Of a stretch of 57,587 bases of DNA, positions 49,267-54,284 are shown one piece after another. The first letter of the stretch is position 1. Each line of letters opens with the position of its first letter. Source of the stretch: Gemmatimonadota bacterium (GTDB lineage: Bacteria > Gemmatimonadota > Gemmatimonadetes > Longimicrobiales > Gaopeijiaceae); assembly GCA_022826005.1 (NCBI GenBank), contig JAJDVT010000014.1:1-57587 (forward strand), in the 5' to 3' direction. Below the pieces are notes generated by a model. That model was given only the letters and a program-made list of their open reading frames with translations. It did no database searches and was not told where the DNA came from. Both the position numbers and the translations under genes were made by a program.

Positions 49267-50502
<1,236 letters not shown>

Positions 50503-50586: not shown

Positions 50587-50664
50587 ACAGTGAACAGTAA
50601 TCGGTTCCGGGGCCAGGCACATCAGAAGGGGAAACCCGTCGTGAGGCGAGCACGCCGCCCACCG

Positions 50665-50702
50665 TGACAGATTCTTTGACAGATACTACCATGAATCTGT
50701 CA
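50665..50702. promoter_or_regulatory. TGACAGAT operator cluster upstream of fic
   Basis: The octamer TGACAGAT occurs at 50665-50672 and 50677-50684 in direct orientation, and inverted (ATCTGTCA) at 50695-50702. The outer pair extends to a perfect 10-bp inverted repeat, TGACAGATTC/GAATCTGTCA, with an 18-base loop. A fourth, diverged relative (GTCACAGACTG) follows. A TTGACA at 50676-50681 is embedded in it. The cluster is 90-127 bp upstream of the fic start and about 165 bp upstream of icd. Confidence 0.5.
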
Positions 50703-50791
50703 AGCAATCCGTCACAGACTGCACCTCGCACTCCGGGACGCAACCCGCGGGCGGCCCAGGCAGAAGGCGAAGGAAAGGAGGGTCGAGAGGA

Positions 50792-51931
50792 TTGGAAGCA
50801 CATACGTCGCTGTCCGGATACCGGCGCCAGTGGGGCGTCTCGCCGAAGACGCGCTACCAACTGGGCGAGTGCGACGCACTGGTTGCTGCGATTCGCTCGA
50901 CCCCCATCCTTCCCGAAGAACAGCAGCGGCTCCTCAACGCTGCACTCGCGCGGGGAGCGCACGCCACGACCGCCGTCGGGGGCAACCCCCTCCTCCCCGG
51001 CGAAGTCTCCGAGGTCCTCGCCTCCAACCGTCCGCCCCCGGGTGAACACCCCCTCGCCGCCGAGGTGCGCAACGCCGCGTCCATCGCCTGCCGGCTCATG
51101 AACGAGGCCGCCGGCGGACACCCGTCAGCCATGGACGCGGCGTTCCTGCTCAAGGTGCACCAGCGAATCGGCGACGACCTCGAAGAGCACATCGACGCCA
51201 TCCCCGGCCACTTCCGCACCGGCCCGGCCCCGGCCGGCCAGCCAGCCCCGCCCGCCGACCGGATCCCGGAACTCATCGATGGCCTCTTCGCCTGGCTCGA
51301 CCAGGAGTTCCCCGATACCGAACCCGGCGGCAACTTCGGCAACGCCATCATCCGGGCGCTGCTCACCCACGTCCACCTCCTGTGGATCCACCCCTTCGGC
51401 GACAGCAACGGCCGCACGGCGAGGATGCTCGAGTCCTGTGTCCTCCTGGCCGCGGGGGCGCCCGCGATCACCTCGCAGATTCTCACCGGCTTCTACCACG
51501 AGACCCACGCCGAATACCGGCGCCAACTTGAAATCGCGGCCCGCGACCGCTCGCCGACCTCGTTCATCGCCTACGCGGTCGAGGGGCTCCGCGACGGCCT
51601 GCGCGAGACACTGGAGGAGGTGCAAGGCACGCAATTCCGGAGCGTGTGGCGCGGCTTCGTATTCGACACCTTCGACCGGCAGCGGCACCGCAAGCGCACC
51701 GTCTTCCTGCGGCGGCGGGAACTCATGCTCGCCTTCCCGCTGGAGGGGAGGTTCGAGATCGACGAAGTCGCCGTGCTCGACACCGAAGTCGCGCGGCGCT
51801 ACGGAGGACTCTCGGAGCGCACGCTGCGCCGGGATCTGGCTTTTCTGGTCCGGACCGGACTGCTCACGGAGGGAGAAGGCGCCTTCTCGGCGAATGCCGG
51901 GGCGCTGCGCCCACTTGCGAAGCAACCCTGA
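50792..51931 (+). CDS. Fic domain protein with altered inhibitory motif and winged-helix C-terminus
   Basis: 379 residues. The Fic core motif HPFGDSNGRTAR (200-211) keeps the catalytic His and both Arg; a Ser replaces the usual Gly after the Asp. Fic enzymes transfer AMP or another nucleotide moiety to target proteins. In the N-terminal helix the class II inhibitory motif (S/T)xxxE(G/N) reads T59-T-A-V-G63-G, with Gly in place of the inhibitory Glu. The C-terminus (about 300-365; LDTEVARRYGGLSERTLRRDLAFLVRTGLL) is a DNA-binding winged helix. A TTG start follows AAGGAGGG and GAGGA. It is preceded by an operator-like repeat cluster and followed by plug-motif genes on the same strand. Confidence 0.85.
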   Translation: MEAHTSLSGYRRQWGVSPKTRYQLGECDALVAAIRSTPILPEEQQRLLNAALARGAHATTAVGGNPLLPGEVSEVLASNRPPPGEHPLAAEVRNAASIACRLMNEAAGGHPSAMDAAFLLKVHQRIGDDLEEHIDAIPGHFRTGPAPAGQPAPPADRIPELIDGLFAWLDQEFPDTEPGGNFGNAIIRALLTHVHLLWIHPFGDSNGRTARMLESCVLLAAGAPAITSQILTGFYHETHAEYRRQLEIAARDRSPTSFIAYAVEGLRDGLRETLEEVQGTQFRSVWRGFVFDTFDRQRHRKRTVFLRRRELMLAFPLEGRFEIDEVAVLDTEVARRYGGLSERTLRRDLAFLVRTGLLTEGEGAFSANAGALRPLAKQP

Positions 51932-52035: not shown

Positions 52036-52470
52036 ATGAGCCAACGAACCGACACCGTTCGTAGCATCAGCCTGATCGTCGGAAGTGCTTTCGCCGCCGT
52101 CGCCGTTACGGCATTTGCGATGATGGAGACGGAGAAGCCGGCCGAGCAGCCCTCCGCGACCACTGAAGTGAAGACCGTGGTCTTGAAGCCGGCCGACGCT
52201 TCCGGCTTCATCGTCGGGAGGGTGGAGCCCGCCAGGCCGGAGGCGGGCGAGTTACGTACGATCAGGGTCAGGGGCGCCAGCGGCGAGCGACCGGTGCTGT
52301 ACATCAACGGGGTTCGGATGGAAGGAACCACGAGGGAGGCCCTCGAGGGTATCGACCCGGCAAACATCGATTTCGTGGATGTGATCAGGCAACGCGTCGG
52401 CCGGGATGGCGAGATCAGGATCAGGACCAAGGAAGGGACGCAGGGCGGAAAAGACGGGAACGACCGCTGA
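52036..52470 (+). CDS. exported small protein with isolated TonB-plug-like motif (1 of 3)
   Basis: 144 residues. ATG with GGAG upstream. The N-terminal segment SISLIVGSAFAAVAVTAFAM is a membrane anchor or uncleaved signal. After a linker comes RPVLYINGVRMEGTTREALEGIDPANIDFVDVIRQ, read here in two halves, the pattern of the beta-strand/helix unit of TonB-receptor plugs (xxYxxDGV...DPxxIxxIxV). The protein ends soon after with REIRIRTK-like strands. No barrel or carboxypeptidase-like domain is present. It lies 104 bases after fic on the same strand. Function unknown. Confidence 0.75.
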   Translation: MSQRTDTVRSISLIVGSAFAAVAVTAFAMMETEKPAEQPSATTEVKTVVLKPADASGFIVGRVEPARPEAGELRTIRVRGASGERPVLYINGVRMEGTTREALEGIDPANIDFVDVIRQRVGRDGEIRIRTKEGTQGGKDGNDR

Positions 52471-52531
52471 TCACATCTGGACCGAGCCGCCGGCAGCGTC
52501 GGTGAAGTCCCGGGAAACAGGGAGAACAGGC

Positions 52532-53224
52532 ATGAGACAACGCAGAGAAGACGTCAGGAACTTCGCCGTGATCGTGGGAAGCGGCGCTCTGGGAGCGGTC
52601 GCCGCCCTGGTGGGGGTGTCACTGCTGGGATCGTCGGCGGAGGTGCAGGATCGGCCCGCCCCGGCGCCGGAGGTGACGGAGGCGAATCCCTCCCGGTTCC
52701 GAGCGGAGATCTCGATCAGCAGGACCGAGCGCCCATTGGTGCTGTACCGGCAGATGCCGGAGGCGAGGTTGAAGCACTTCGAGCTTCTCGAGGTCAACCA
52801 CCGCGCGATGGTGGAAGCGATGGCGCGCCGCGAGATTGTGGTGGCCCAGGCGAGGGCGACCAATGAGGAAGGCGACCGGTCTACCGCCCTGGAAGCCGAA
52901 CTTCAAGAAGAACTTCAGGGCGCACTGGCGGCACTTCAGGCCCGACTGGAAGGGTTACAGACATCGACTCGTGAACTCGAAGGGACCATCTCGGGGGTCC
53001 GGATCCTTTCTGCCGGTGACCCCGGCGCCGCACCCGTCATCTACGTTGATGGCGTTCGGTTCGATGGTCCAATGGAGGACCTGAGCCCGGTGGACATCGA
53101 GAGCATCGATGTGATCAAGGGGGACGCCGCCATCGAGCAGTATGGCAAGGAAGGCGAGCACGGCGTCATCATCATCAAGAAGAGGAAGCCGGGCAAGAAG
53201 AGGAAGGGCGGCGGCCCTCCCTGA
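52532..53224 (+). CDS. exported protein with coiled coil and TonB-plug-like motif (2 of 3)
   Basis: 230 residues. GGGAG precedes the ATG. One N-terminal hydrophobic helix (VIVGSGALGAVAALVGVSLL), then a charged segment with a long coiled coil (about 90-160; EAELQEELQGALAALQ). A plug-like unit follows: APVIYVDGVRFDG, DIESIDVIKGDAAIEQYG, HGVIIIKKRK, and a lysine-rich tail. The start MRQRR is shared with the third paralogue. It lies 61 bases after the first paralogue, probably in one transcript ended by the hairpin at 53236. Confidence 0.75.
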   Translation: MRQRREDVRNFAVIVGSGALGAVAALVGVSLLGSSAEVQDRPAPAPEVTEANPSRFRAEISISRTERPLVLYRQMPEARLKHFELLEVNHRAMVEAMARREIVVAQARATNEEGDRSTALEAELQEELQGALAALQARLEGLQTSTRELEGTISGVRILSAGDPGAAPVIYVDGVRFDGPMEDLSPVDIESIDVIKGDAAIEQYGKEGEHGVIIIKKRKPGKKRKGGGPP

Positions 53225-53646: not shown

Positions 53647-53774
53647 GGTGTCAGTCGAGGGCTTCAGGGTGGATGGAGGTTGTCCTTGCAAGGCAGCGGG
53701 CGCCGCGGCTATTGTCAAGGGACGGGAGGCGGCTCTCCGAGCCCACCGACGCTCCTCCGAGCGAGCCAACGAGC

Positions 53775-54284
53775 ATGAGACAGCGCAGAACAGAACCAGG
53801 GGACATCCCCCGGAAGGTTGCAGGGGGCGTTCCCGGACTGGTGGCCACGCTGGCCCTTGGTGCGTGCGGCCTTGAAACCATCGTCGCTCCGGAGGAGGCG
53901 ATGCATTCCGCTCCGATGGCGACTGACGCCCGCAATGTGGAAACGGCGTCCTCAAAGGACGCGGCAGAGCCCGGCCAGGAGTCGGCTGAGGCCCCGCAGG
54001 CGGCCGGAAATGGAGCCCCCGAGGGCTCTTCGGAGGTATTTGTGTCGGGGACGGCCTGCGTGGGCCCCACAGCCTTGCCCCTGATAATCATAGATGGTGT
54101 GCGTTCCAAAGCCAGCTTTGACGACATCGCAGCGCTTGAACTTGAAAGCTTCGAGATCGTCAAGGGTTCCCACGCAGTCGAGGACTACGGCGAGGACGGC
54201 AGGAACGGCGCCATCCTGATCTTCACCAAACAGTCGGATGGAGACGGCAAGGACGGTGGCACGCCCGAGGAGCCACCCAACTAA
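53775..54284 (+). CDS. lipoprotein with TonB-plug-like motif (3 of 3)
   Basis: 169 residues. [10 protein letters not shown] starts as in the second paralogue; a hydrophobic run ends in the lipobox LALGAC, so lipidation is likely. A Glu/Ala-rich linker leads to [37 protein letters not shown] and [10 protein letters not shown], again a complete plug-like unit and nothing else. The stop overlaps, on the opposite strand, the end of a decayed gene (54281). Function unknown. Confidence 0.75.

What the first reader, a model, noticed from the sequence alone, without database searches (positions are those of the whole stretch)
50792..51931. Fic protein with the inhibitory glutamate naturally replaced by glycine
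Seen: the region TTAVGGN (59-65) aligns with the class II inhibitory motif TSAIEGN; the Glu position is Gly63 (GGG, one base from GAG). The catalytic motif HPFGDSNGRTAR is retained, with Ser for Gly in the anion loop. Known: Glu-to-Gly exchange at this site is the standard way to relieve autoinhibition in Fic enzymes such as HYPE and SoFic. Inference: the enzyme is constitutively active, or control has moved to expression, consistent with the operator cluster upstream and the winged helix.
Basis: partly seen in the sequence, partly recalled or inferred. Interest (0 to 1): 0.7.

Follow-up and report, generated by a model that had tools for sequence, protein, structure and literature searches.

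The report
Fic enzyme turned autoregulatory DNA-binding protein
The protein does carry a natural glycine where Fic enzymes normally hold an inhibitory glutamate, but its close relatives show that the whole enzyme pocket has been decaying (nearly all have lost the catalytic histidine) while the DNA-binding tail and its own promoter operator are kept, so it is most likely a former Fic enzyme living on as a transcription regulator rather than a permanently switched-on enzyme.

Summary
In detail: at 50792-51931 (+) a 379-aa Fic/winged-helix protein carries TTAVGGN (Gly63, codon GGG) where class II Fic proteins have TxAIEGN, with HPFGDSNGRTAR at 200-211. The reading "constitutively active" is not supported. 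The window protein lies inside a 20-member clade (18 genus genomes, two other genera; support 100/100) in which 19 members have lost the catalytic His (Arg 17, Val, Ser). Position 63 is E, G, R, A, T or Q, and in three members the motif is deleted. Relatives outside the clade all keep both H and E. The window's His is nested among Arg proteins, so it is probably a back-mutation (CGC to CAC) in a pocket lacking 11 of 18 canonical residues. What stays constrained is the N-terminal segment, the winged helix, and a four-half-site array over the gene's own -35/-10 (50664-50715). Its core palindrome, TGACARAT-N10-ATYTGTCA, also precedes His-bearing homologues from two other phyla but not the paralogues. 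The clade sits at one core locus (pepA-icd<>fic-yqgF-mltG). Best model: a captured Fic/wHTH autorepressor (like Yersinia CccR) that lost AMPylation and kept DNA binding. DNA binding and inactivity are inferred, not assayed.

The parts
50792..51931 (+). Fic domain + C-terminal winged-helix protein, 379 aa, TTG start
   Evidence: Pfam PF02661 2.4e-12; AF2 model, Z 20-24 to 4rgl, FICD, SoFic, 7xux; orthologues
50912..50995 (+). helix and loop corresponding to the class II inhibitory segment (residues 41-68); Gly63 at 50978-50980 where HPF relatives have Glu
   Evidence: alignment and entropy; codons
51389..51424 (+). Fic motif HPFGDSNGRTAR (200-211): His200 (CAC) present, Ser205 for Gly; NGRxxR kept
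51689..51901 (+). winged-helix region (residues 300-370); recognition-helix positions S341, R343, T344, R347, D348, L349 invariant in the clade
50813..50959 (+). N-terminal segment (residues 8-56), most constrained part in the window subclade; presumed dimerisation segment by analogy with CccR
   Evidence: dN/dS 0.09-0.18 in window pairs; CccR dimer via alpha1 and N-terminal loops
50664..50715 (.). four-half-site operator array GTGACAGAT, TTGACAGAT, ATCTGTCAA, ATCCGTCAC; core palindrome TGACAGAT-N10-ATCTGTCA at 50677-50702
   Evidence: conserved upstream of orthologues, absent from paralogues
50664..50692 (+). putative sigma-70 promoter of the fic gene: -35 GTGACA 50664-50669, 17 bp, -10 TACCAT 50687-50692, overlapped by the array
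   Evidence: read from sequence; same 17-bp geometry in orthologues and in L006/L008; a consensus match only
49267..50490 (-). icd-like (isocitrate dehydrogenase) gene, divergent neighbour, conserved in the clade
   Evidence: synteny

Best explanation
A class II-type Fic protein with a C-terminal winged helix was probably an autorepressor before the clade arose (its operator is shared with His-bearing homologues in other phyla). In this Gemmatimonadota clade it is found at a core locus between icd and yqgF-mltG, and the clade ancestor lost the catalytic His (HPF to RPF). With no AMPylation left to restrain, the inhibitory Glu segment drifted or was deleted; Gly63 is one of these outcomes. The protein is kept as a dimeric DNA-binding repressor of its own promoter: two winged helices bind the TGACAGAT-N10-ATCTGTCA palindrome, with two outer half-sites, and occlude -35/-10. 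The window copy has regained His200 by one base change but in a degraded pocket, so it is probably inactive or nearly so. Shown: residues, tree, selection pattern, operator and synteny conservation. Inferred: dimerisation, DNA binding, repression, enzymatic inactivity.
For: Tree without the motif columns: 20 rows form one clade 100/100; excluding the window from it is rejected (AU p 5e-68). All 14 outgroup rows have H and E; the clade has R17/V/S/H at 200 and E7/A4/G3/R/T/Q/deleted3 at 63. One His loss plus one regain needs 2 changes; without regain at least 6 losses are needed on the topology. The window lacks 11 of the 18 residues that are invariant in HPF proteins but variable in the clade. 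dN/dS: Fic core 0.48 vs 0.26 for N-term+wHTH in the window subclade (bootstrap difference 0.10-0.35); HPF pairs 0.12-0.13 vs 0.19-0.21. Palindrome with 0-3 mismatches upstream of 17 of 20 clade members and 0-2 in L004, L006 (Myxococcota) and L008 (Desulfobacterales); paralogues 5-8, as in shuffles. Synteny with icd/pepA only in the clade. CccR precedent: Fic+HTH dimer repressing its own promoter through inverted repeats near -35/-10 (PMC9755527).
Against: No DNA-binding or activity data. NGRxxR stays almost invariant in the clade and the Fic core is under strong purifying selection in the E-bearing RPF subclade (dN/dS 0.15), so the pocket still does something there, perhaps ligand binding. The window protein does have His, Asp204, Asn206, both Arg, and no Glu, formally the minimum for deregulated activity. 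The palindrome is weak (4 mismatches) in L029, L030 and L031 and weak or missing in several His-bearing relatives (L026, L027, L059-L061). The HTH is weak by sequence. The AF2 model is of moderate confidence (pLDDT 73.6) from a 9-row alignment.
Confidence: 0.62

Rival explanations
1. One reading: an active, deregulated Fic AMP-transferase, held in check only by its expression level. Gly63 leaves Arg211 free for the gamma-phosphate and His200 is the base.
For: His200, Asp204, Asn206, Arg208, Arg211 present, Glu63 absent. E-to-G variants of FICD, C. elegans Fic-1 and SoFic have been made and solved, and FICD E234G is strongly activated. Operator for expression control present.
Against: His is a nested exception among Arg/Val/Ser relatives; Ser205 in the GNG anion hole; 11 of 18 canonical positions lost, including Tyr150 and Tyr243; loosest dN/dS in the Fic core. 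An unrestrained AMPylase would be expected to keep its pocket.
Confidence: 0.13
2. Pseudo-enzyme nucleotide sensor: the clade lost transfer chemistry but kept the ATP/ADP site, so nucleotide binding (no longer hindered by Glu63 in some members) tunes DNA binding by the winged helix.
For: N206 20/20 and G207, R208, R211 19/20 retained in the clade while His and Glu vary; strong constraint on the Fic core in L017-L020 (dN/dS 0.15). BepC, with a non-canonical motif, has no detected enzymatic activity and still works by binding a partner (PMC8401265).
Against: Phe and Asn of the motif also hold the loop fold (PMC4342408), so retention may be structural. L032 lost the motif yet kept the operator. 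In the window subclade the core is relaxed.
Confidence: 0.25
3. Plain decay: the gene is on its way to becoming a pseudogene and nothing is selected.
For: Catalytic residues lost repeatedly; gene absent from the same locus in four genomes (G002, G009, G013, G015).
Against: Open frame in 18 of 23 genus genomes without an inner stop; dN/dS 0.18-0.38 overall in every clade pair compared; operator and recognition helix conserved.
Confidence: 0.05
4. His200 (or Ser205) in the window is a sequencing or assembly error and the true protein is RPF like its relatives.
For: Only one genome carries it; single base from CGC.
Against: The sister L012 has Val (GTC) at the same codon, so the site is labile anyway; neighbouring genes are intact and highly identical to relatives.
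Confidence: 0.07

Closest known systems
CccR (YPK_0951, Yersinia pseudotuberculosis; PMC9755527; PDB 7xux is probably this protein, by its length and release date)
   Same: N-terminal Fic domain, C-terminal HTH; represses its own promoter through inverted repeats next to -35/-10; window model aligns over 328 residues with 7xux
   Different: CccR has His192 and alpha-inh SARIEG and AMPylates FtsZ; operator AGATAATCAT-N26-ATGATAATCT; the clade here lost His and/or Glu, has a different operator, and sits at a core housekeeping locus
FICD/HYPE (wild type and E234G forms)
   Same: best PDB sequence match; inhibitory motif aligned residue by residue; the window carries the E234G state naturally
   Different: Animal ER enzyme with TPR repeats, no winged helix; catalytic pocket intact; E234G there is man-made
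SoFic (3eqx, 3zcn, 3zec E73G)
   Same: class II Fic with C-terminal winged helix
   Different: AMP-transferase with intact motif; low sequence identity (about 15%)
Bartonella Beps (BepC, Bep8) and C. fetus Fic2
   Same: Fic domains with degenerate motifs that are retained (PMC8401265, PMC5651007)
   Different: Host-directed effectors or toxins; no winged helix reported in the passages read
DUF1612 proteins (Kinch et al. 2009, PMC2686095)
   Same: remote Fic-like N-terminus with winged-helix C-terminus; that paper already proposed that HTH fusions may regulate fic expression
   Different: Far more divergent; relationship not tested here

Membership tests
Class II Fic proteins | Fic fold with HPFx(D/E)GNGRxxR loop | tested here: met
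   Pfam Fic 2.4e-12, fold match; motif met with one departure, Ser205 for Gly
Class II Fic proteins | N-terminal inhibitory helix with (S/T)xxxE(G/N) | tested here: not met
   TTAVGGN; the segment is homologous but the defining Glu is Gly
Class II Fic proteins | catalytic histidine | tested here: met
   His200 in the window; absent in 19 of 20 clade members
Class II Fic proteins | AMP transfer, raised by removing Glu | not testable with these tools
   needs a biochemical assay
Fic-HTH autorepressors (CccR type) | Fic domain followed by C-terminal winged helix | tested here: met
   AF2 and VIA-align: 3eqx, 7xux, 4rgl over more than 300 residues; C-terminus like Fur/PerR
Fic-HTH autorepressors (CccR type) | inverted repeats over own promoter | tested here: met
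   array at 50664-50715, conserved in orthologues; the promoter itself is a consensus match
Fic-HTH autorepressors (CccR type) | homodimer, binding to and repression of own promoter | not testable with these tools
   only the constraint pattern and operator symmetry point to it
Fic-HTH autorepressors (CccR type) | active AMP-transferase (of FtsZ), secreted | not tested
   pocket decay argues against activity; no secretion test made

The most novel reading that the evidence does not exclude
A Fic enzyme was domesticated into a dedicated DNA-binding regulator that lost its chemistry but kept a nucleotide pocket as a sensor, and which acts on a family of phased operator arrays scattered over the chromosome; the window copy then regained the catalytic His without the inhibitory Glu, a natural reversal towards an unrestrained enzyme.
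Probability: 0.15. Interest if true: 0.75.

Novelty: new variant of a known kind. Interest (0 to 1): 0.5.

Why it matters
It gives a natural series in one gene at one locus (His and Glu both present, then His lost, then Glu lost or helix deleted, then probably His regained), so the order 'chemistry goes first, its brake goes later' can be seen directly. If confirmed, it shows a Fic toxin-like enzyme surviving as a transcription factor, and it warns that a missing inhibitory Glu in a database Fic protein need not mean an active enzyme.

Tried and rejected
Independent-pairs test of His loss against Glu loss: only 2 pairs, no power. Regulon reading of the scattered arrays: not adopted as part of the main claim, because several arrays lie between convergent genes or inside open frames (L113, L106) and the co-occurrence with the gene is weak statistically (non-own arrays in about 11 of 18 genomes with the gene, 0 of 4 genomes verified to lack it; one-sided about 0.045 by hand, uncorrected for kinship). 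Mobile-repeat reading: also not proven; spacers between paired arrays looked unrelated by eye. Literature searches for catalytically dead Fic transcription factors and for Gemmatimonadota Fic proteins found none in the open library, which misses most subscription journals. NCBIfam hits (XopAC, SoFic) are far under their cut-offs and were not used.

Full report
What is there. The frame 50792-51931 (+) encodes a 379-residue protein: an N-terminal helical segment, a Fic domain and a winged helix. TTAVGGN lies at residues 59-65, Gly63 is GGG (50978-50980), and HPFGDSNGRTAR lies at 200-211. The best solved relatives are human FICD chains, and the highest scores go to chains that carry the engineered TVAIGGN, because the window has the same Gly. 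A profile from 34 relatives confirms the register. The AF2 model (pLDDT 73.6, 9 sequences) aligns to full-length Fic-wHTH structures 4rgl, 8cil, 7xux and 3eqx, and its C-terminus to Fur/PerR winged helices.

The relatives change the meaning. Searches of the genus, a wider phylum sample and a species-level genome collection gave orthologues in 18 of 23 genus genomes, a few in other genera, and His-bearing relatives in Gemmatimonadota, Myxococcota and Desulfobacterales. A maximum-likelihood tree built without the inhibitory and catalytic columns puts 20 sequences (18 from the genus plus L028 and L030) in one clade with 100/100 support. Outside it, all 14 sequences have (T/A)AIEGN and a catalytic His. 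Inside it, position 200 is Arg in 17, Val in one, Ser in one, and His only in the window. Position 63 is Glu in 7, Ala in 4, Gly in 3, and Arg, Thr or Gln in one each; in three proteins (L015, L029, L031) the segment is deleted in frame. Placing the window outside this clade is rejected (AU p 5e-68). One loss of His and one regain suffices (2 changes); without regain at least six separate losses are needed on this topology. The regain is a single G-to-A change (CGC to CAC).

State of the pocket. Eighteen columns are invariant in the 14 His-bearing proteins but clearly variable in the clade; the window has the canonical residue at 7 and lacks it at 11, among them Tyr150, His229, Asn236 and Tyr243, and it has Ser205 in the GNG anion hole. 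NGRxxR is kept by 19 of 20. In pairwise counts (Nei-Gojobori) the Fic core of the window subclade evolves at dN/dS 0.48 against 0.26 for the N-terminal segment plus winged helix (bootstrap difference 0.10 to 0.35). The four pooled pairs share sequences; the two disjoint pairs alone give 0.49 vs 0.26 and 0.44 vs 0.28, with intervals that include zero. In His-bearing pairs the core is the tighter part (0.12-0.13 vs 0.19-0.21), and in RPF pairs that keep Glu it is 0.15 vs 0.27. So catalysis was lost at the base, and the window's own subclade has loosened further.

What is kept. The array GTGACAGAT, TTGACAGAT, N10, ATCTGTCAA, ATCCGTCAC at 50664-50715 covers a -35/-10 pair with a 17-bp spacer. The palindrome TGACARAT-N10-ATYTGTCA lies within 200 bp upstream in 17 of the 20 clade members with 0-3 mismatches; in L029, L030 and L031 it has 4, no better than the best shuffles, and these are not counted as conserved. 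It is perfect in L004 and L006 (Myxococcota) and has 2 mismatches in L008 (Desulfobacterales). It is weak or missing (4-7) in L026, L027 and L059-L061, so conservation outside the clade is patchy. Paralogues have 5-8 mismatches, as shuffled sequence does. Recognition-helix positions Ser341, Arg343, Thr344, Arg347, Asp348 and Leu349 are invariant in the clade. The gene order pepA-icd, divergent fic, then glyoxalase, yqgF and mltG is kept through the clade, partly even in the two other genera, and is not found around the His-bearing relatives. In four genus genomes the locus is intact with fic cleanly missing.

Mechanism. The nearest characterised protein is CccR of Yersinia pseudotuberculosis, a Fic domain with a C-terminal HTH that dimerises through alpha1, AMPylates FtsZ and represses its own promoter through inverted repeats near -35 and -10 (PMC9755527). 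Fic-HTH fusions as regulators of fic expression were proposed in 2009 (PMC2686095). I propose that the window protein works like the DNA-binding half of CccR: a dimer on the palindrome blocks its own promoter. The AMPylation half was lost in the clade ancestor, and Gly63 is one of several later outcomes at a site with nothing left to inhibit. Binding, repression, dimerisation and inactivity are inferences.

The rival. In FICD, E234G strongly raises auto-AMPylation and loss of His363 or Asp367 abolishes it (PMC4342408). The window has all three favourable states (Gly63, His200, Asp204). I rate activity at about 13% because of the degraded pocket and the nested position, but only an assay can close it.

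Beyond the gene. Arrays like the operator occur elsewhere in genus genomes: about eight further places in G000 and about a dozen or more in G021, while the reversed control pattern gave none anywhere. Pairs of palindromes sit at 72-73, 83-85 or 93-95 bp, mostly 84, close to whole helical turns of 10.5 bp, though orthologous loci are counted more than once and a single dominant spacing cannot prove periodicity. The four genomes verified to lack the gene have none. Some arrays lie upstream of genes, others between convergent genes or inside frames. Whether these are operators or a repeat family is open.

Noticed in passing
G000 C51:27816-27863 (L065), C51:11070, C61:49961, C70:23104, C75:43609 (L066), C81:136096, C133:41232, C135:16890; many in G007, G012, G018, G020, G021: Arrays like the fic operator recur over the chromosomes of genomes that carry the gene, often as pairs of palindromes 84 bp apart (also 72-73, 93-95), with zero matches for the reversed control pattern; none in four genomes verified to lack the gene. 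Operators or a repeat family is unresolved.
   Followed up: partly
L113 (LmbE-like gene), L106 (ankyrin gene), L110 (multicopper oxidase): Some arrays lie inside long open frames and are translated in frame, e.g. DRFPDRFEVESVTE, as if tolerated in linkers.
   Followed up: partly
L015:678-1700, L029:1291-2286, L031:1495-2490: Orthologues with in-frame deletions that remove the inhibitory motif and following residues (query about 62-95 and about 61-115).
   Followed up: partly
L054:3875-5065 (G000 C108): Paralogue in the same genome with an intact TTAIEGN but HPCGDGNGRTAR (Phe to Cys in the catalytic loop); G000 holds nine Fic-domain loci.
   Followed up: no
window 52036-52470, 52406-53224, 53673-54284: Three small proteins downstream each match a piece of the TonB-receptor plug domain (PF07715) without a barrel.
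   Followed up: no
window about 50620-50640 and same place in orthologues: A second conserved stretch, CACATTAGAAGGGG-like, between icd and the operator in most genus members; possibly part of the icd promoter.
   Followed up: no
L017-L020 upstream regions: A second array 84 bp upstream of the fic operator, in the subclade that also has many arrays elsewhere.
   Followed up: partly
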